From Kofleriaceae bacterium (GTDB lineage: Bacteria > Myxococcota_A > Polyangia > Haliangiales > Haliangiaceae): DNA of 39,933 bases. Where the stretch lies: positions 1 to 39,933 of the forward strand of contig JALHPV010000027.1 in the NCBI GenBank assembly GCA_022842285.1. The letters are read 5' to 3'. Shown piece after piece: positions 24,426 to 37,921 of the stretch (positions are counted from its first letter, which is position 1; every line of letters begins with the position of its first letter). The notes under the pieces are model-generated. The model was not told where the DNA came from. It ran no database searches and worked only from the letters and a program-made list of their open reading frames with translations. Made by a program: the position numbers and the translations under genes.

Positions 24426-24435
24426 CTAGCTAGTC
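24420..24435. other. 16-bp palindrome carrying stop codons in all six frames
   Basis: GACTAGCTAGCTAGTC is a perfect palindrome. TAG occurs at 24423, 24427 and 24431 on the plus strand and at the mirror positions on the minus strand, so every frame on both strands is stopped. The first plus TAG ends the lipoprotein gene, and the first minus TAG ends the PATAN gene. Confidence 0.9.
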
Positions 24436-27400
24436 TGGCTTCGGCTTCTTCTTGCCGACGAGCCGCTCCCAGAAGGTCTGGGGCTGGTAGCCCTCGTCGA
24501 GATCCTCGAACGACTCCGTCACGAGCTTCGGGACCTGGGCGGTCTCGGTCGCGCCCTGCTTGAAGAACGCTTCCTCGTCCTCGCTGAACTTGCTGATCTC
24601 CGTCTTCGCGACGTCCGCCTTCACCTTCTCCACGGTCGCCGCGCGCGCGGGGGTCTCGACGCTCTTGCTCGGCGGCGCCGCCACCTGCTTCGCGACAACG
24701 GCCGCGACCGCCTCCTGCGCGGCGGCGATATCGGCGACGAGGATCGACGGCTCACCCGAGCGGATATCGGCCGGGGTCGGCCGCTTCGCGCGCTGCGCGA
24801 TCTCGCCGGTCTTGTCCGGTGGCCGGTCGTCCGCGACCTCGGGCACTCGCGGCGGCGGCACCCGCCCCGTCTCCACCGTGGTGTGAGCCTCGCGCGGAAT
24901 GCCATCCGACGGCTCGTCGGTGAGCTCCGAGGGCGCCCCGCCGGACGGGGGGCTCTCCGCGCGAACGAACGGCGTCGTCTTTGGTTCGTCGTCGTCGGTG
25001 CCGAGGCGCTTCGCGAGATCATCCGATGACGACGGCCGGGGCACGGTATCGACCGGGACCGTCGCCACGATCGTCGCCGGCTTCTCCTCGGTGCTCGTCG
25101 GGATGACGGGCGTTGGTTCCTTCGCCTCCGTGACCGTCGCGACGGGCTCGGCGACGAGGCGCGCCGTCTGCTCCGTATGCGTGATGAGGACGCGGTCGCC
25201 TTCGGTGACGGTGGCGGTGGGCGTCTCGGTCGTGACGACGCTCTCCGTGGCAAGCGCCGCCGGCTTCTCGGTGACGGCCAGCGGAGCGGGCTCGTCGCTC
25301 GAGACGTCGAACCTCGCGTGTGTCGATCCGCCGGGCTTGGCGCCGGCCTTTGCGGGCGCAGATACACCGGGCTTGGTGCCGGACTTGGTGGCCTCGCTGG
25401 CGACGAGATCTTTGACCATGCTGGCCGCAGACTTCGCGGCCCAGGCCTCGAGCTTCTCCTGCTCGGCCTGGGCGGCCGCCGCCTGTGCGGCGCTCTCGAT
25501 GTCGGTGCCACGGTCCGCATCGACCTCGCGCGCCGTGCGCACCGGACCGCTGGTCTCGCGACCCGGGCGCGCCTTGCTGTCGCTGGCGGGATTCTCGTCG
25601 CCCGCATCAGCGGCCGGCCTGGCGTCGGCAGCCGCCTTGGCGTCGGCGGCCACCTTGGCGTCGGCAACCGCCTTGGCGTCGGCAGCGGCCTTCTCGGCGG
25701 CCTCGGCTTCGAGCTTGGCCTTCTTGTGGGCCTCGGCTTCGACGCGTGCCCGTTCGAGGGCGTCGGCTTCGTCACGCTTGCGCTGCGCTTCCGCGGCGGC
25801 GGCCTTCGCCTCGGCGGCGGCCTTCTCGGCGGCGACCTTCTCCTCGGCGGCGGCCTTCTCGGCGGCGGCCTTCGCCTCGGCGGCGGCCTTCTCGGCGGCG
25901 ACCTTCTCCTCGGCGGCGGCCTTCTCGGCGGCGGCCTTCTCCTCGGCGGCGGCCTTCTCCTCGGCGGCCTTCGCGGCGGCGGCCTTCTCCTCGGCAGCGG
26001 CCTTCTCGGCGGCGGCCTTCGCCTCGGCGGCCCGCGCATGAGCCGCGAGCTTCACTGTCTCCGCCTCGGCGAGCGCACGAGCGGCGTCCGACACGGTGGG
26101 GATCGGCGCCGACGGCTCGGCCCCGATGACGACGCTGGGCTCGAGCCCGATGTCCGACGCGAAGATCTTCTCGCGCTGCGTCGTGTCCATGATGGACTCG
26201 AGGCCTTCGCGCGCCTGGTCACGGGTCGTCGGAAGCATGATCTCTCCCGACGCCTTCGACGCGGGGACGACTCCCGCGAGCGGGCCGACCTCGGCACCGA
26301 CGATGCGGGGGACGAGCGCGCCCCAGTCGATATCCGTCCTGGACGGCGTGACCGCGACGGGGGTGTTGGCGCGGCGCTTCTTGCGCTTGCGGCCGCCCTT
26401 GGACTTCATCCGCTGGGACTCGCGCGCGGCCGTCTGGGTGAGGGGACCGCTCTCGGCGAGGGATGGATCGCGCTCGGGGGCCTCGGTGCCGACGAGCCAC
26501 TCCTCGATCGCGAGGACGGCGCGCCAGGTGGACTTCTTGCGGGCCTGCGAGGCCGCGCGCAAGAGCCCCACGTCCATGGCGCGCTGGGCGACGCGGAGGG
26601 TCTCGAAGACGCGGTAGGGCGAGTCCTCGAGGACATCGGCCAGTACGCGGTGTCCGTCGAACATGCGGAGGACACCGTGGACCTCCGTGGGGATCTGGCG
26701 CCCGTACGCCTGGATGCGCTGCATGTCCTGCTCGAGGACCATCGACGGGGAGAGCTGACCGCTGGAGTCGCGGACGCCGGTGAGGAAGCGCTCGGCGTCG
26801 GCGAAGAGCTCCTCGCGGTCGAGCGGGATCTGGTGTCGGCGGACGATGTCCTCGCGGTGGAAGTCGAAGCGAGCATCGGTCCACAGGAGCAGCTGGTGGA
26901 GGGCCGCCTGGCCATGGATCAGGCCCACCTGCGCCGAGGTGACCTCGCCGTGATAGAAGCGCACCTCGCCGCGACGCAGGCCGCGGATGAGGGTCAGGAC
27001 CGCGCTGCGGCCGAGGGCGGACAGGGCTCGCACGAGGGTGAAGACGCCGGTGGTCTCCGCGAGGCTGCCGACGAGCTGCTCGCGCTGGGCGGCGGGCCGA
27101 TCCCGGAGGAGGCGCCCCACCGTGACGATGTCGCGGAGGTAGGTCGGCAGGAGGACGACCTCGTCGGCGCCGGCCTGTTCGGCGTCGGTGCGGCGGACCC
27201 CACGGCCGGTGAAGATGATGGGGACATCGAGCTGCCGCTCGCCGAGCACGGCCCGGACCCGGCGCACGATGTCGAGGCCGGCGGGGCCCCCGATGATGAT
27301 GAGCCCGGGCGGCGTATCGTCGACGGGGAGGTCGAGCTTGGCGATTTCGGCCGGGACGGGGAGCTCCTCGACCTGGACCCCCTCGCGGGCGAATCCCAGC

Positions 27401-27462
27401 CGGATCTGGTGCCGAGCCCGGTCATCGGGGTCGATCACGAAGACTTTCGATAGCCCCGCCAT
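24430..27462 (-). CDS. Pseudo-receiver / PATAN (DUF4388) protein with long Ala-Lys-Glu coiled region
   Basis: 1010 residues. Residues 1-115 have the receiver fold (SKVFVIDPDDRARHQIRLGF, then IIFTGRGVRRTDAEQAGADE), but the phospho-acceptor strand reads LIIIGGPAGLD, with Gly where Asp should be. Residues about 128-225 are a DUF4388/PATAN domain (LVGSLAETTGVFTLVRALSA, GEVRFYHGEVTSAQVGLIHG, ALHQLLLWTDARFDFHRED). A helical part to about 320 and a basic patch (KSKGGRKRKKRRAN) follow. Residues about 475-620 are a near-continuous AAAEKAAAEEKAAA-type coil, then Pro/Thr/Glu-rich disorder. It ends FWERLVGKKKPKPD. PATAN domains mediate regulator contacts, for example in phototaxis and motility systems. 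Divergent from the sigma54 activator. Confidence 0.87.
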   Translation of the reverse strand: MAGLSKVFVIDPDDRARHQIRLGFAREGVQVEELPVPAEIAKLDLPVDDTPPGLIIIGGPAGLDIVRRVRAVLGERQLDVPIIFTGRGVRRTDAEQAGADEVVLLPTYLRDIVTVGRLLRDRPAAQREQLVGSLAETTGVFTLVRALSALGRSAVLTLIRGLRRGEVRFYHGEVTSAQVGLIHGQAALHQLLLWTDARFDFHREDIVRRHQIPLDREELFADAERFLTGVRDSSGQLSPSMVLEQDMQRIQAYGRQIPTEVHGVLRMFDGHRVLADVLEDSPYRVFETLRVAQRAMDVGLLRAASQARKKSTWRAVLAIEEWLVGTEAPERDPSLAESGPLTQTAARESQRMKSKGGRKRKKRRANTPVAVTPSRTDIDWGALVPRIVGAEVGPLAGVVPASKASGEIMLPTTRDQAREGLESIMDTTQREKIFASDIGLEPSVVIGAEPSAPIPTVSDAARALAEAETVKLAAHARAAEAKAAAEKAAAEEKAAAAKAAEEKAAAEEKAAAEKAAAEEKVAAEKAAAEAKAAAEKAAAEEKVAAEKAAAEAKAAAAEAQRKRDEADALERARVEAEAHKKAKLEAEAAEKAAADAKAVADAKVAADAKAAADARPAADAGDENPASDSKARPGRETSGPVRTAREVDADRGTDIESAAQAAAAQAEQEKLEAWAAKSAASMVKDLVASEATKSGTKPGVSAPAKAGAKPGGSTHARFDVSSDEPAPLAVTEKPAALATESVVTTETPTATVTEGDRVLITHTEQTARLVAEPVATVTEAKEPTPVIPTSTEEKPATIVATVPVDTVPRPSSSDDLAKRLGTDDDEPKTTPFVRAESPPSGGAPSELTDEPSDGIPREAHTTVETGRVPPPRVPEVADDRPPDKTGEIAQRAKRPTPADIRSGEPSILVADIAAAQEAVAAVVAKQVAAPPSKSVETPARAATVEKVKADVAKTEISKFSEDEEAFFKQGATETAQVPKLVTESFEDLDEGYQPQTFWERLVGKKKPKPD
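25605..26040. repeat. Ala/Lys/Glu codon repeat region
   Basis: Degenerate 12- to 15-base units built on GCC-TTC-TCC-TCG-GCG-type words (plus strand) fill about 435 bases and encode the coiled coil of the PATAN protein. Two longer blocks around 25820-25920 are nearly identical, consistent with slippage or unequal exchange. Confidence 0.85.
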
Positions 27463-30478: not shown

Positions 30479-31105
30479 ATGGCGATGGTTCTCTATGTCG
30501 GTAGCAAGCGGTATTCGTCGTGGTCGTTGCGCCCCTACCTGGCGCTCGCCCAGGCCGGGCTCGACTTCGAGACTCGCGTCATCCACCTCGATCGCCCCAC
30601 GACGGCCGGAGAGATCGCACTGGTCTCCCCGACGGGGCGTGTGCCCGTGCTCCACGACGGAGAGCTGCGCATCTGGGATTCCCTCGCGATCTGCGAGTAC
30701 GCCGCGGAGCTCGTCCCGGCCCTGTGGCCCGCAGATCGGGCCCAGCGCGCCCGGGCCCGCGCGATCAGCGCGGAGATGCACGCGGGCTTCGCCGCACTCC
30801 GGACGAACATGACGATGGACGTGATCGGCCGCTTCCCCGGCCAGGGTCACGTCCCCGAGGCGCTCGCGGATGCGCGCCGCATCCAGGCGATCTGGGCCGA
30901 CGCGATCGCCGCGAGTGGAGGGCCGTACCTGTTCGGGCGCGCCTTCACCATTGCCGACGCGATGTACGCCCCGGTCACCACGCGCTTCGTCACCTACGGC
31001 GTCGAGGTCGACGCCACGGCGCGGGCCTACATCGACGCGATCACCGCGCATCCCGCGATGCAGCGCTGGCTCGCCGACGCCGCTCTCGAGCCGGCCAAAG
31101 GCTAA
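30479..31105 (+). CDS. Glutathione S-transferase
   Basis: 208 residues, the standard GST length. Thioredoxin-like N-domain: LYVGSKRYSSWSLRPYLALA with the Ser-rich activation site, then SPTGRVPVLHDGELRIWDSL with the cis-Pro and the glutathione-binding D-S. Helical C-domain with GPYLFGRAFTIADAMYAPVT (the N-capping box and hydrophobic staple S/T-x-A-D). It conjugates glutathione to electrophiles or acts in thiol chemistry; substrate unknown. A second in-frame ATG lies 6 bases in. The MOSC gene follows 9 bases later, so the two likely form an operon. Confidence 0.95.
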   Translation: MAMVLYVGSKRYSSWSLRPYLALAQAGLDFETRVIHLDRPTTAGEIALVSPTGRVPVLHDGELRIWDSLAICEYAAELVPALWPADRAQRARARAISAEMHAGFAALRTNMTMDVIGRFPGQGHVPEALADARRIQAIWADAIAASGGPYLFGRAFTIADAMYAPVTTRFVTYGVEVDATARAYIDAITAHPAMQRWLADAALEPAKG

Positions 31106-31114
31106 GCTCCTTCT

Positions 31115-31582
31115 GTGAGCGCCCGCATCGTCCAGCTATCGATCTCGAAAGGGGGCGTGCCGAAGCTGCCCATTGACGAGGTGCACGTCGGCACGCTCGG
31201 CCTCGCCGGCGATGCGCACCGCGATCTGAAGCATCACGGCGGCATCGAGCGCGCGGTGTGTCTCTACTCGGCCGAGGTCATCGCGGCGCTGCAGGCCGAG
31301 GGGCACCTCATGGCGCCCGGCTCCCTCGGCGAGAACGTCACGATCGCGGGCCTCGACTGGGCGACGCTCCAGCCCGGTCAGCGGCTTACGCTCGGCGCCA
31401 CCGTCGTACTCGAGCTCACGCGTGACACCACGCCGTGTCGCACGATCATGAATCAGTTCGCCGACCAGAAGTTCAGCCGCATCGCGCACCGCCACCATCC
31501 CGGCTGGTCACGCTGGTACGCGCGCGTGATCACCGAGGGCACCGTGCGCGCGGGCGATCCGGTCGCGATCAGCGGGCCGTGA
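31115..31582 (+). CDS. MOSC-domain protein
   Basis: 155 residues from GTG 31115. VQLSISKGGVPKLPIDEVHV opens the domain; then GDAHRDLKHHGGIERAVCLY, GSLGENVTIAGLDWATLQPG, LELTRDTTPCRTIMNQFADQ with the single conserved Cys, and HPGWSRWYARVITEG. MOSC domains occur in molybdenum-cofactor sulfurases and in small stand-alone proteins that act in sulfur-carrier or N-hydroxylated-compound metabolism. There is no partner domain, so the reaction is undefined. It overlaps the convergent zinc-ribbon gene by 14 bases at the 3' end. Confidence 0.94.
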   Translation: MSARIVQLSISKGGVPKLPIDEVHVGTLGLAGDAHRDLKHHGGIERAVCLYSAEVIAALQAEGHLMAPGSLGENVTIAGLDWATLQPGQRLTLGATVVLELTRDTTPCRTIMNQFADQKFSRIAHRHHPGWSRWYARVITEGTVRAGDPVAISGP

Positions 31583-33982: not shown

Positions 33983-35104
33983 ATGGCGGAGGAGCCTCGC
34001 GCAGGGCTAGTCGTCGGAGGCCGCTACGAGCTGATCGAAGTGGCCGGTCGCGGCGGCATGGCCGATGTCTGGCGAGGTCGTGTGAAGGGCGACGCCGGCT
34101 TCGCGCGGGATGTCGCCGTGAAGCAGATGCACCAGAACCTCGCATCGCAGCCGAACTACGTCGCGATGTTCGTCGAGGAGGCCCGCGTCGGCTCCGCCCT
34201 GCAATCTCCGAACGTCTCGGAGGTCCACGACTTCGTCCACGACCATGGCAACTACTACATGGTCCTCGAGTGGATCGACGGCATCGATCTGGGGTCCTGG
34301 GTGAAGTGGCATGTCCAGCGAAACGAGCCCACGCGCTGGGAGCTCATCGCCGCCATCGGCGTCGGCGTGCTCCGTGGTCTCGCCGCCGCGCACGAGCGCC
34401 TCGGTCCCGACGGCCGGCCCCTGCCGATCGTCCACCGCGACGTCTCGCCGCACAACGTCCTCCTGACCACGCGCGGCATGGTCAAGCTCATCGACTTCGG
34501 CCTCGCCCTCGCCAGCGACCGCACGAAGGAGACGACCGAGCCCGGCATCGTCAAAGGCAAGATGTCGTACCTCGCGCCGGAGATCGTCGCCGGCGGTCGC
34601 CCCGTTCCCGCGTCGGATCAGTTCGCCTGTGGCTCCGTCCTCTGGGAGGCCCTCGTCGGTCGCAAGCTCTTCGACGGCGCCACTGACTACGAGACGTATA
34701 CGCGCCTGCGCGACTGCATGGTCCAGCCCCTCCGCCCCCTCCGTCCCGACATCCCGCAACCCTTCGCGCAGATCATCCACCGTGCGCTCTCGCCGGCCGT
34801 CGACACGCGCTTCCCGTCGACGCGCGAGATGGCCCGGCAGATCACGACCGCGCTCAAGAAGGTCCAGCTCCGCAAGGACCTGCACACCGTCCTCGCCCGC
34901 AGCGTCGTCGATGCCCGCACGTCGCTCGGCATCACGCACCGCGCCGACGAGCACTCGGACGCGACCCCGATGGCCGAGATCATGGCCGAGTCCACGCCGC
35001 GCATCGAGGTGCCGGTCCAGACCAAGAGCACGGCGGCGAGCATCGTCGAGCGGGCCAAGGGCCTCGCGCACTACCTGCCGTTCTTCGGCCGCAAGCGCGG
35101 CTAG
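33983..35104 (+). CDS. Cytoplasmic Hanks-type Ser/Thr protein kinase
   Basis: 373 residues. Kinase core at about 13-285: glycine loop VAGRGGMADVWRG, Lys in VAVKQMHQN, catalytic loop HRDVSPHN (an RD-type kinase; the SPHN form is typical of myxobacterial kinases), Mg-binding DFG in LIDFGLALAS, the P+1 region KMSYLAPE, and DQFACGSVLWEALVG. A basic 90-residue tail without a transmembrane span or PASTA repeats follows, ending ERAKGLAHYLPFFGRKRG. It is soluble, perhaps membrane-adjacent by its basic end. An FHA-bearing sigma54 activator at 27510 is a possible substrate (inference). Divergent from SirB1-like with 58 bases between starts. Confidence 0.96.
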   Translation: MAEEPRAGLVVGGRYELIEVAGRGGMADVWRGRVKGDAGFARDVAVKQMHQNLASQPNYVAMFVEEARVGSALQSPNVSEVHDFVHDHGNYYMVLEWIDGIDLGSWVKWHVQRNEPTRWELIAAIGVGVLRGLAAAHERLGPDGRPLPIVHRDVSPHNVLLTTRGMVKLIDFGLALASDRTKETTEPGIVKGKMSYLAPEIVAGGRPVPASDQFACGSVLWEALVGRKLFDGATDYETYTRLRDCMVQPLRPLRPDIPQPFAQIIHRALSPAVDTRFPSTREMARQITTALKKVQLRKDLHTVLARSVVDARTSLGITHRADEHSDATPMAEIMAESTPRIEVPVQTKSTAASIVERAKGLAHYLPFFGRKRG

Positions 35105-35146
35105 ATCATCGCCCCTGCGTCCTCGCCGCATGGCACCGTGTCACCC

Positions 35147-37921
35147 ATGACGGTCGACACCTGGCGCGCACAGGGACGGACGCTCGGCGTCCTCGGCTAC
35201 ACGCTCTTCGTGGCCGACTCCGGCCCCAGCGACCGACCCGTGCTGGTGCTGCTGCACGGCTTTCCCACGTCGAGCTACGACTGGGCGCGCGTCTGGCCGG
35301 CCTTGAGCAAGCGCTTTCGCTGCATCGCCCCGGACCTCCTCGGGTTCGGCTTCTCGGACAAGCCCACGCCGCATCGCTACTCGATCGGCGAGCAGGCGGA
35401 TCTCGTCGAGGGCGTCCTCGCGGCTCTCGGCGTCGAGCAGTACCACGTGCTCGCGCACGACTACGGCGACACGGTGGCCCAGGAGCTGCTGGCCCGCGAC
35501 AACGCGCGGACAGAACCACGGTGGCGCTCGGTGTGCTTTCTGAACGGAGGGCTGTTCCCGGAGACGCATCGCGCGCGCATCATCCAGAAGCTGCTCGCCA
35601 CGCCCGCCGGGCCGGCGCTCACGCGTGTGCTCGCTCGCCGCGGCTTCGATCGGGCCTTCGCGAGCGTGTTCGGTCCGGACACGAAGCCGAGCGGCGCCGA
35701 GCTCGACCAGTTCTGGCAGCTCATCCAGCACGGGGACGGCGGCCACGTGTTCGCCTCGCTCATCGGCTACATGGCGGAGCGCCGCACGCATCGCGAGCGC
35801 TGGGTGGGCGCGCTGATCGATGCCCGGTGCCCGGTGCAGCTCATCAACGGCTCGGTCGATCCCGTGAGCGGGGCCCACATGGTGGCGCGCTATCGCGAGG
35901 TCGTCGGTCGGGGTGACATCGTCGAGCTCGCGACCATCGGGCACTATCCGCAGGTCGAGGCGCCGGCGCGGGTCGTCGCGGCGTACCTCGGCTGGCTCGA
36001 TGGCCACGCCGCGCTGCGGTGGGATGTGCTCCTCGTCGGGGCGCTCGTGTTCGATGGCTCGGGAGCCGAGCCACGCCCGGAGGACGTCGCTCTGCGCGCC
36101 GGCCGGATCGCGGCCCGAGGACAGGCGCTCGATCGGTCGCGCGCCGATCGCGTCGTCGAGCTGGGTGGCCGCTGGCTGATGCCGGGGCTACTCGACATCC
36201 ACACTCACTTCGACCTCGAAGTCGAGCTCGCGCCCGACTTGCCCGAAGCGATCCGCCACGGCAGCACGACCGTCGTGGTCGGCAACTGTTCGCTCGGGCT
36301 CGCGTTCGGAAACCTGCGCCGGGATGGCCACGACCCCATCGTCGATTGCTTCGCGCGGGTCGAGAACGTCCCCAAGCCCGTCCTCCGGGCGGTGGCTGAC
36401 CGCGCGACGTGGTCGCATAGCCACGAGTACCTGGCCCACCTCGACCGCCTTCCTCTCGGGCCGAACCTCGCCGCCCTCGTGCCTCACTCGATGCTCCGGA
36501 TCGCGACGATGGGGCTCGCGGCCAGCATCGAGCGGGCGCCGACGGCCGACGAGCTCGCGCGGATGGAGGCGCTGGTCCAGACCGCGATGGAAGAGGGCTA
36601 CATCGGCTTCTCCACCGACGCGCTGCCGTTTCACTACCTCGCGAACGATCCGAACCGGCGCTCCAAGATCCCGGGCCAGTACGCGTCGTTCGACGAGATC
36701 CGGCGCCTCGTCGAGCCCGTCCGCCACCACGGGCGCGTCTGGCAGGCGACGCCCCCGAAGGACCGGCCGCTCGAGGTCACGCGGCTGTTTTCGCTCACCT
36801 CGGCGCGCCTGTATGGCCGCGCCCTCAAGACCACGGCGGTCGCCGCGCTCGACGTGGCGAGCAACAAGTCGTTGCTCGTGCTCGGGCGGATGCTCACGGC
36901 CGTCCTCAATGGCCCCCTCGAGGGACACTTCCGGTTGCAGGCCCTGGCCGCGCCCTTCAAGACGTGGAGCGAAGGGGCCATCACGCCCCTCGCCGAGGAG
37001 ATCGAGCCGCTCCGGGTGCTGAACGAACCCGAGGTCGAGGATCGCGCCGCGCGCGAGGCGATCATGGAGGACCCTGCGTGGCAGGCCCGGTTCCTGGCCA
37101 TGTGGCGGCACGGCAAGCGCGGATGGGGCGTCGCGCGCGCGAAGCGGGTGTTCAAGCGCGAGGACTACGCGATCGATCGCGACCTGCGCTCGATGGTCGT
37201 CGACCGCTGCCCGGTGCCCGCGTGGCAGGGCGAGACCCTGCACCAGGTCTACGAGCGCCTGCTCCGCCATCAGGCCGGCGCGGCGGTGGCGCGGTCCGCC
37301 GACGAGCGCGACGCCTTCGACGGCTTTCCCCGTCCGATCGACGACGACGCGCGCTTCATGATGCATCTCTTGCGGCGCTTCGATCGCGACCTCGTATGGT
37401 GGACCATCTCCGCCAACCGCGACGAGGCGGGCGTGGCGGCGCGGCTCGTGGACCCGCTGCTGCTGCCCGGGTTCTCCGACTCGGGCGCCCACCTCCTGAA
37501 CATGGCGTTCTTCGATGCGAACCTGCGCGCGCTCCGCATCGCGGCGCGGCAGCCAACCCCGCTCGCGTCCGTCGCGCACATGGTCGGGCGCCTGACCCGC
37601 GAGCCGGCCGCGTTCTTCGGTCTCGATGCCGGGGGCATGGAGGTGGGCGACGTCGCGGACCTCGTGGCACTCGATCCCGTCGCCCTCGTGGCGTGGGATC
37701 CAGACACCACGGTGACGCGGGTCTACCGCGAGCTCCTCGATACCGAGCAGCTCGTCAATCGTCCTCCGGCGGTCGTCACGCGCGTGTGGATCGCGGGCGA
37801 GGAAGTCTGGGACGGCGAGCACTTCCATGCGGCGGCAGGTCAGCGACCGTTCGGCCGCGTCTTGCGCGCGCAGAACCACTGGCCCGCTCCCGGCGCGTCC
37901 GGATCCGTCGCCCAGGACTAG
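35147..37921 (+). CDS. Fusion: MEST-like alpha/beta hydrolase + D-aminoacylase-type amidohydrolase
   Basis: 924 residues in one uninterrupted frame (GTG at 35138 is an alternative start). Residues 1-287 are an alpha/beta hydrolase: oxyanion HGFP (37-40), nucleophile elbow AHDYGDTVAQ with Asp105 in place of Ser, acid near Asp238 (GSVDPVSG) and His266 (GHYPQ). LNGGLFPETHR and RWVGALID recall the animal MEST/PEG1 subfamily. Residues about 290-905 are an amidohydrolase of the N-acyl-D-amino-acid deacylase type: GLLDIHTHFDLEVE (metal His352, His354), VVVGNCSLG with Cys381, YIGFSTDALPFHY, and GFSDSGAHLLNM near the end. Catalytic motifs of both halves look intact. The first might open an ester, epoxide or halide and the second an amide or urea-like bond of one substrate (inference). 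Monocistronic. Confidence 0.9.
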   Translation: MTVDTWRAQGRTLGVLGYTLFVADSGPSDRPVLVLLHGFPTSSYDWARVWPALSKRFRCIAPDLLGFGFSDKPTPHRYSIGEQADLVEGVLAALGVEQYHVLAHDYGDTVAQELLARDNARTEPRWRSVCFLNGGLFPETHRARIIQKLLATPAGPALTRVLARRGFDRAFASVFGPDTKPSGAELDQFWQLIQHGDGGHVFASLIGYMAERRTHRERWVGALIDARCPVQLINGSVDPVSGAHMVARYREVVGRGDIVELATIGHYPQVEAPARVVAAYLGWLDGHAALRWDVLLVGALVFDGSGAEPRPEDVALRAGRIAARGQALDRSRADRVVELGGRWLMPGLLDIHTHFDLEVELAPDLPEAIRHGSTTVVVGNCSLGLAFGNLRRDGHDPIVDCFARVENVPKPVLRAVADRATWSHSHEYLAHLDRLPLGPNLAALVPHSMLRIATMGLAASIERAPTADELARMEALVQTAMEEGYIGFSTDALPFHYLANDPNRRSKIPGQYASFDEIRRLVEPVRHHGRVWQATPPKDRPLEVTRLFSLTSARLYGRALKTTAVAALDVASNKSLLVLGRMLTAVLNGPLEGHFRLQALAAPFKTWSEGAITPLAEEIEPLRVLNEPEVEDRAAREAIMEDPAWQARFLAMWRHGKRGWGVARAKRVFKREDYAIDRDLRSMVVDRCPVPAWQGETLHQVYERLLRHQAGAAVARSADERDAFDGFPRPIDDDARFMMHLLRRFDRDLVWWTISANRDEAGVAARLVDPLLLPGFSDSGAHLLNMAFFDANLRALRIAARQPTPLASVAHMVGRLTREPAAFFGLDAGGMEVGDVADLVALDPVALVAWDPDTTVTRVYRELLDTEQLVNRPPAVVTRVWIAGEEVWDGEHFHAAAGQRPFGRVLRAQNHWPAPGASGSVAQD

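What the first reader, a model, noticed from the sequence alone, without database searches (positions are those of the whole stretch)
35147..37921. Natural fusion of a MEST/PEG1-like alpha/beta hydrolase with a D-aminoacylase-type amidohydrolase
One open frame of 924 codons joins two complete catalytic domains. The first half carries HDYGD at the nucleophile elbow together with LNGGLFPETHR, RWVGALID and GHYPQ, which I know from the animal imprinted protein MEST, an alpha/beta hydrolase without a firmly known substrate. The second half has HTH metal ligands, GNCSLG and GFSDSGAH of N-acyl-D-amino-acid deacylases. A bifunctional enzyme acting in two steps on one compound, such as an acylated or halogenated amide, would explain a fusion kept intact. 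A bacterial fusion partner could reveal what MEST-like proteins act on.
Basis: partly seen in the sequence, partly recalled or inferred. Interest (0 to 1): 0.72.

Follow-up and report, generated by a model that had tools for sequence, protein, structure and literature searches.

The report
MEST-like hydrolase fused to divergent amidohydrolase
One bacterial gene really does join a close relative of the animal imprinted protein MEST to an enzyme of the D-aminoacylase fold; the fusion recurs in a second genome and the two genes sit side by side in two others, so the pair probably serves one small-molecule breakdown pathway, but the substrate is unknown and the second half lacks the usual D-aminoacylase metal ligands.

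Summary
Confirmed: one open frame, 35147-37921 (+), 924 codons, joins two whole domains with almost no linker. It is not an assembly accident. A genome of another family in the same class carries the same fusion (66% identical over 1-916). The two genes are neighbours in two further genomes: a TetR/amidohydrolase/MEST-like operon with ATGA overlaps (G069), and in the gammaproteobacterium HTCC2148 a TetR-amidohydrolase pair divergent from a MEST-like gene. Both sites share a palindromic operator, AACTTGACGTCRAGTT. N half: MEST family (44% over 295 aa to human MEST, whose letters I recalled), not a haloalkane dehalogenase; Asp105/Asp238/His266 invariant, and the serine of MEST's 'SHD' is alanine here, so the nucleophile should be Asp. 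C half: D-aminoacylase fold (Z about 41), but the two beta-site His ligands that define those deacylases are absent in all 29 relatives, while HxH, Cys and Asp are kept. 'N-acyl-D-amino-acid deacylase' is therefore not supported. Most likely a bifunctional hydrolase of a TetR-controlled catabolic pathway (N epoxide- or ester-cleaving, C amide-cleaving through a rearranged metal site). Substrate unknown. Many genomes hold either half alone, so the coupling is facultative. New domain architecture of known families.

The parts
35147..37921 (+). fusion gene, 924 codons plus stop (alternative GTG start at 35138)
   Evidence: second fused genome
35147..36007 (+). N half, residues 1-287: MEST-like alpha/beta hydrolase
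   Evidence: Pfam, alignment A1, AF2 mean pLDDT 94, recalled MEST comparison
35459..35461 (+). Asp105, putative nucleophile (HDYGD)
   Evidence: invariant in 25 rows; position 103, Ser in MEST's SHD, is mostly Ala in the bacterial family
35540..35572 (+). LNGGLFPETHR, MEST-type signature, residues 132-142
   Evidence: N133, G134, P138, E139, H141 invariant
35768..35770 (+). Tyr208, invariant cap-region tyrosine, candidate acid that activates an epoxide or ester oxygen
   Evidence: invariant; geometry not tested
35858..35860 (+). Asp238, putative triad acid
   Evidence: invariant
35942..35944 (+). His266, putative triad base (GHYPQ)
   Evidence: invariant
36008..36019 (+). junction, residues 288-291; last N helix ends at 287, first C strand begins at 292
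   Evidence: AF2 secondary structure; junction alignment
36020..37918 (+). C half, residues 292-924: D-aminoacylase-fold amidohydrolase of a subfamily without beta-site His ligands
36200..36208 (+). HxH motif (His352, Thr353, His354)
   Evidence: invariant
36287..36289 (+). Cys381 (GNCSLG), equivalent of the D-aminoacylase metal Cys
   Evidence: invariant
36743..36754 (+). Gln533-Ala534-Thr535-Pro536 on predicted beta5, where D-aminoacylases carry the metal His of ATHMRDE
   Evidence: Q533 invariant, no His at 531-536 in any of 29 rows
37478..37480 (+). Asp778 (GFSDSGAH), catalytic Asp equivalent
   Evidence: invariant
33983..35104 (+). Ser/Thr protein kinase gene 42 bp upstream, same strand; neighbour, probably not part of the system
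   Evidence: Pfam Pkinase; no kinase among the flanking genes scanned in G159, G069 and HTCC2148

Best explanation
A genuine bifunctional enzyme that serves a small-molecule (possibly lipid-like) catabolic step. SHOWN by sequence: one frame, two domains, one fusion event shared by two genomes, and recurrent adjacency of the unfused genes next to a TetR regulator in two phyla. INFERRED: in the N half Asp105 attacks an electrophilic carbon of an epoxide or ester, a covalent ester forms, and His266/Asp238 drive its hydrolysis, with Tyr208 as candidate proton donor. INFERRED: the C half cleaves an amide or cyclic amide with water activated by Asp778 and a metal held, unlike in D-aminoacylases, at the alpha position (His352, His354, Cys381, Asp778), because the beta-position histidines are gone. 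INFERRED: the halves work on the same or successive compounds, and fusion or operon linkage only guarantees equal supply, since many bacteria keep just one of the two.
For: Fusion in G000 and G159, sisters in both half-trees at 100/100 and 100/98. G069: TetR-amidohydrolase-MEST with ATGA overlaps. HTCC2148: TetR-amidohydrolase, 12 bp apart, divergent from a MEST-like gene across a 48-bp perfect palindrome. The two TetRs are homologous (33%) and have the same operator core AACTTGACGTCRAGTT just upstream, the only copy in each genome. N triad invariant in 25 rows; fold ties epoxide hydrolases and dehalogenases, Z 30-33. C fold is D-aminoacylase-like, Z 41 against 29.5 for the next family; 352/354/381/447/533/778 invariant; subtype V site defined by Cys97/His222/His252 and Asp368 (PMC12017989).
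Against: Linkage is facultative: most unfused C-half genomes checked lack a close MEST-like gene, and many genomes hold only the N half. Neighbouring genes name no substrate. The operator is absent from G000, and in G159 lies at a TetR gene on another contig, not by the fusion. The alpha-metal proposal rests on ligand loss and conservation only; no metal was modelled. AF2 gave no reliable domain arrangement: the N half is poorly modelled in the full-length model.
Confidence: 0.55

Rival explanations
1. Co-expression fusion only: two broad-specificity hydrolases of one detoxification or stress regulon were joined by loss of a stop codon; each acts on its own substrates and no intermediate is shared.
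For: Each half occurs alone in many genomes. No linker or interface is conserved beyond two sequences. TetR regulators often control detoxification sets (general knowledge).
Against: Adjacency recurs in two phyla and two orientations and the fusion has stayed open across 66% identity.
Confidence: 0.3
2. The C half is no longer a hydrolase: a D-aminoacylase-fold protein with a dismantled metal site that binds a ligand, or catalyses a metal-free reaction, and supports the N half.
For: Both beta-site His ligands are missing in all 29 relatives.
Against: HxH, Cys381, His447, Gln533 and Asp778 are invariant between Myxococcota-type and gammaproteobacterial sequences down to about 33% identity, which suggests an active centre under selection; the subfamily mostly occurs without the N half.
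Confidence: 0.12
3. The N half is an ordinary haloalkane dehalogenase or epoxide hydrolase and the MEST likeness is superficial.
For: Folds tie at Z 30-33 with both classes; best Pfam and PDB hits are generic Abhydrolase_1 and dehalogenases.
Against: 44% identity over 295 aa and 235 bits to recalled MEST against 81 bits to the best PDB chain; MEST signatures invariant in the bacterial family; HGNP and HDWG residues of dehalogenases replaced.
Confidence: 0.05
4. The fusion is a sequencing or assembly artefact.
For: Draft assembly of 550 contigs.
Against: The same uninterrupted fusion in an independent genome; smooth coding signal across the junction.
Confidence: 0.01

Closest known systems
MEST/PEG1 (animal alpha/beta hydrolase)
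   Same: 44% identity over the whole domain, same HDYGD, NGG(L/I)FPETHR, RWVGAL and HYPQ motifs (human sequence recalled; SHD at 145-147 agrees with PMC5481029)
   Different: No N-terminal membrane segment; Ser of SHD replaced by Ala; fused to, or beside, an amidohydrolase
Haloalkane dehalogenases and Asp-nucleophile epoxide hydrolases
   Same: Fold (Z 30-33), Asp nucleophile, Asp and His partners, HGxP motif
   Different: About 20-26% identity; halide-binding Asn and Trp absent; only one invariant cap tyrosine found
D-aminoacylases, N-acyl-D-glutamate deacylase and PpOngB (subtype V amidohydrolases)
   Same: Fold (Z about 41), HxH, Cys, catalytic Asp, GHS/PHS motif
   Different: Metal-binding His of beta5 and beta6 absent in the whole subfamily; about 630 aa instead of about 480
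Unfused amidohydrolases of Halieaceae and Myxococcota-type genomes
   Same: 47-56% identity, same altered ligand set
   Different: Single-domain; mostly next to unrelated genes such as SelO and dihydroorotate dehydrogenase

Membership tests
MEST family | full-length similarity clearly above other alpha/beta hydrolases | tested here: met
   235 bits, 44% over 295 aa against 81 bits for best PDB chain; the MEST letters were recalled from memory, checked only by the SHD 145-147 numbering
MEST family | signature motifs HDYGD, NGG(L/I)FPETH, RWVGAL, HYPQ | tested here: met
   (MEST side recalled from memory)
Haloalkane dehalogenase | halide-stabilising Asn (HGNP) and Trp next to the nucleophile (HDWG) | tested here: not met
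   HGFP and HDYG; F39 and Y106 nearly invariant in the family
Epoxide hydrolase (alpha/beta type) | HGxP, Asp nucleophile, Asp/Glu and His | tested here: met
   HGFP, D105, D238, H266 invariant or nearly so
Epoxide hydrolase (alpha/beta type) | two cap tyrosines that activate the epoxide | tested here: inconclusive
Epoxide hydrolase (alpha/beta type) | opens epoxides | not testable with these tools
   needs an assay
Subtype V amidohydrolase (N-acyl-D-amino-acid deacylase) | D-aminoacylase fold | tested here: met
   Z 41 to 3gip, 9gv8 and 1m7j; next family 29.5
Subtype V amidohydrolase (N-acyl-D-amino-acid deacylase) | metal site Cys, His (beta5), His (beta6) | tested here: not met
   Cys381 kept; no His at the beta5 or beta6 strands in any of 29 rows; definition from PMC12017989
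Subtype V amidohydrolase (N-acyl-D-amino-acid deacylase) | catalytic Asp and supporting HxH | tested here: met
   D778, H352, H354 invariant
Subtype V amidohydrolase (N-acyl-D-amino-acid deacylase) | deacylates N-acyl-D-amino acids | not testable with these tools
   needs an assay

The most novel reading that the evidence does not exclude
The fusion and its unfused TetR clusters mark an undescribed two-step hydrolytic pathway in which a MEST-type Asp hydrolase and an alpha-metal, D-aminoacylase-fold amidohydrolase act in turn on one amide-containing epoxide or ester; that substrate would point to the chemistry of animal MEST.
Probability: 0.25. Interest if true: 0.8.

Novelty: new variant of a known kind. 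Interest (0 to 1): 0.55.

Why it matters
MEST is an imprinted gene linked to growth and fat storage whose catalytic function is undefined (PMC5481029). Soluble bacterial relatives with a recurring gene partner, a linked regulator and a defined operator offer a tractable way to find a substrate class. The bacterial alignment also argues that Asp, not the Ser of the published 'Ser-His-Asp' triad, is the nucleophile. On the other side, a widespread amidohydrolase subfamily, likely to be annotated as D-aminoacylase, lacks the metal ligands that annotation implies.

Tried and rejected
Full-length alignment of N-only plus C-only rows (A2) misplaced about 135 residues of the C rows in the N half, so it was not used for folding; A4 replaced it. 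Gene neighbourhoods of the Halieaceae amidohydrolases (SelO, dihydroorotate dehydrogenase, NhaA), of other MEST-like genes and of the window gave no substrate hint. An upstream FAD monooxygenase in G159 was considered as an epoxide source, but it lies about 0.3 kb away and was not seen beside the other clusters. Looked for the TetR operator in the window and in the window's genome: none; one match in G587 lies inside a purF-like frame and looks like chance. No fusion on plasmids (only 33-38% C-half relatives). Literature searches found no paper on bacterial MEST homologues or this fusion, within an open-access library only. The epoxide hydrolase, dehalogenase and related alpha/beta hydrolase folds could not be told apart by structure (Z within about 2).

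Full report
What was checked. Base composition by codon position is coding-like along the whole gene, including the junction. Pfam places an alpha/beta hydrolase at residues 31-118 (best stretch) and an Amidohydro_3 domain from 335. The whole genome (G000, 7.9 Mb) has no second close copy of the fusion and no second close copy of the MEST-like half.

The fusion is real. In a sample of 290 genomes of the same class, one more genome (G159, another family) has an uninterrupted homologous fusion, 66% identical over residues 1-916; reading it shows N and C halves in one frame with only the terminal stop. A sample of 379 genomes of the phylum added no further fusion. In separate trees of the two halves the two fused proteins are sisters with full support (100/100 for C, 100/98 for N), so a single fusion event is the simplest reading. 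The junction is tight: the last helix of the N half ends at residue 287 and the first strand of the C half begins at 292.

The unfused genes are also neighbours. In G069 (a third family of the class) a TetR gene, the amidohydrolase gene and the MEST-like gene follow one another on one strand, each stop overlapping the next start as ATGA. In the marine gammaproteobacterium HTCC2148 (G575) a TetR gene lies 12 bp upstream of the amidohydrolase and both diverge from a MEST-like gene. A 48-bp perfect palindrome fills the divergent region; its core AACTTGACGTCAAGTT occurs, with one base changed, just upstream of the TetR gene in G069. The core occurs once in each of these genomes, and the two TetR proteins are 33% identical. 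By simple arithmetic the chance of such adjacency in HTCC2148 is about 0.006. This supports joint function. It is not obligate: G132, G202, G476, G515 and G591-G595 hold the amidohydrolase without a MEST-like gene, and many genomes hold only the MEST-like gene. Of 19 Halieaceae-type genomes chosen because they hold the amidohydrolase, 9 also have a close MEST-like gene. In G000 and G159 the fusion itself is not beside the operator; G159 has the operator at another TetR gene.

N half. No animal MEST is in the databases on hand. I compared the N half with human MEST as I remember it (326-residue form); its Ser-His-Asp falls at 145-147 in the 335-residue numbering, as printed in PMC5481029, which is a partial check of the recall. 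BLASTP gives 44% identity over 295 residues and 235 bits, against 81 bits for the best PDB chain, a haloalkane dehalogenase. In 25 bacterial relatives Asp105, Asp238 and His266 are invariant, and so are the MEST-type residues of LNGGLFPETHR, RWV and HYP. The residue at the Ser position of MEST's SHD is mostly Ala, so Ser is not a conserved nucleophile; Asp105 sits at the nucleophile elbow, as in epoxide hydrolases and dehalogenases. The Asn and Trp of dehalogenase motifs HGNP and HDWG are Phe39 and Tyr106. The AlphaFold2 model (mean pLDDT 94) matches epoxide hydrolases (8zp6, Z 32.6, 2.2 A over 272 residues) and dehalogenases (8ooh, Z 32.3) equally. [quoted passage not shown] Tyr208 is the invariant cap tyrosine here and a candidate for it, but I could not test geometry.

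C half. The model (pLDDT about 92 over this half) matches the D-aminoacylase group best: 3gip Z 41.6, 9gv8 41.3, 1m7j 40.9, then a gap to dihydroorotase at 29.5. In that group zinc is held at the beta site by Cys97, His222 and His252 (PpOngB numbers), with Asp368 catalytic; the HxH pair assists Asp and, with high metal, forms an inhibitory alpha site (PMC12017989). Here HxH (352, 354), Cys381, His447 and Asp778 are invariant, but the beta5 strand reads VWQ(A/T)TP where D-aminoacylases read ATHMRDE, and no histidine occurs at the beta5 and beta6 ligand positions in any of 29 relatives. The whole subfamily, across Myxococcota-type genomes and Gammaproteobacteria, shares this loss. So the fold is that of subtype V, but the defining metal ligands are not met; an alpha-site mononuclear enzyme is my inference.

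Function. The best-supported reading is a bifunctional enzyme of a TetR-controlled catabolic route: the N half opens an epoxide or ester through a covalent Asp intermediate, the C half cleaves an amide. The substrate and the order of steps are not known. Rivals are a co-expression fusion without a shared substrate (0.3), a C half that is no longer a hydrolase (0.12), a misassigned N half (0.05) and an artefact (0.01). The upstream protein kinase gene (42 bp away) has no counterpart among the flanking genes scanned beside the related clusters and is probably unrelated.

Novelty. Both halves belong to known folds; the joint architecture, the TetR cluster and the altered metal site were not found described in the open-access papers searched. 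I rate it a new variant of a known kind, of moderate interest, because it gives a testable route to the chemistry of MEST-type proteins.

Noticed in passing
L121 6600-6900 (HTCC2148, G575): 48-bp perfect palindrome AGCTTGCAATAAAATGAACTTGACGTCAAGTTCATTTTATTGCAAGCT between a TetR gene and a divergent MEST-like gene; same core upstream of TetR genes in G069 and G159.
   Followed up: partly
L168 7100-9086 (G159 contig C9): TetR gene with the same operator core, followed by a small frame that I take by eye for a DUF962/Mpo1-like membrane protein (not scanned); not near the fusion.
   Followed up: partly
L044 and L121 (HTCC2148): Two paralogous amidohydrolases in one genome: one with VWQTTP, the common Halieaceae type, and one with LWQATPPKD, the type fused or linked to MEST-like genes.
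   Followed up: partly
L099:5671-8184 (and L104:5976-8492): A gene with a major vault protein shoulder domain lies about 0.7 kb from a MEST-like hydrolase gene in two genomes of the window's family.
   Followed up: no
window 24430-27462 (-): 1010-aa protein with only a weak DUF4388 match; otherwise unassigned.
   Followed up: no
window 30479-31582 (+): Glutathione S-transferase and MOSC-domain genes in tandem, possibly another small detoxification unit.
   Followed up: no
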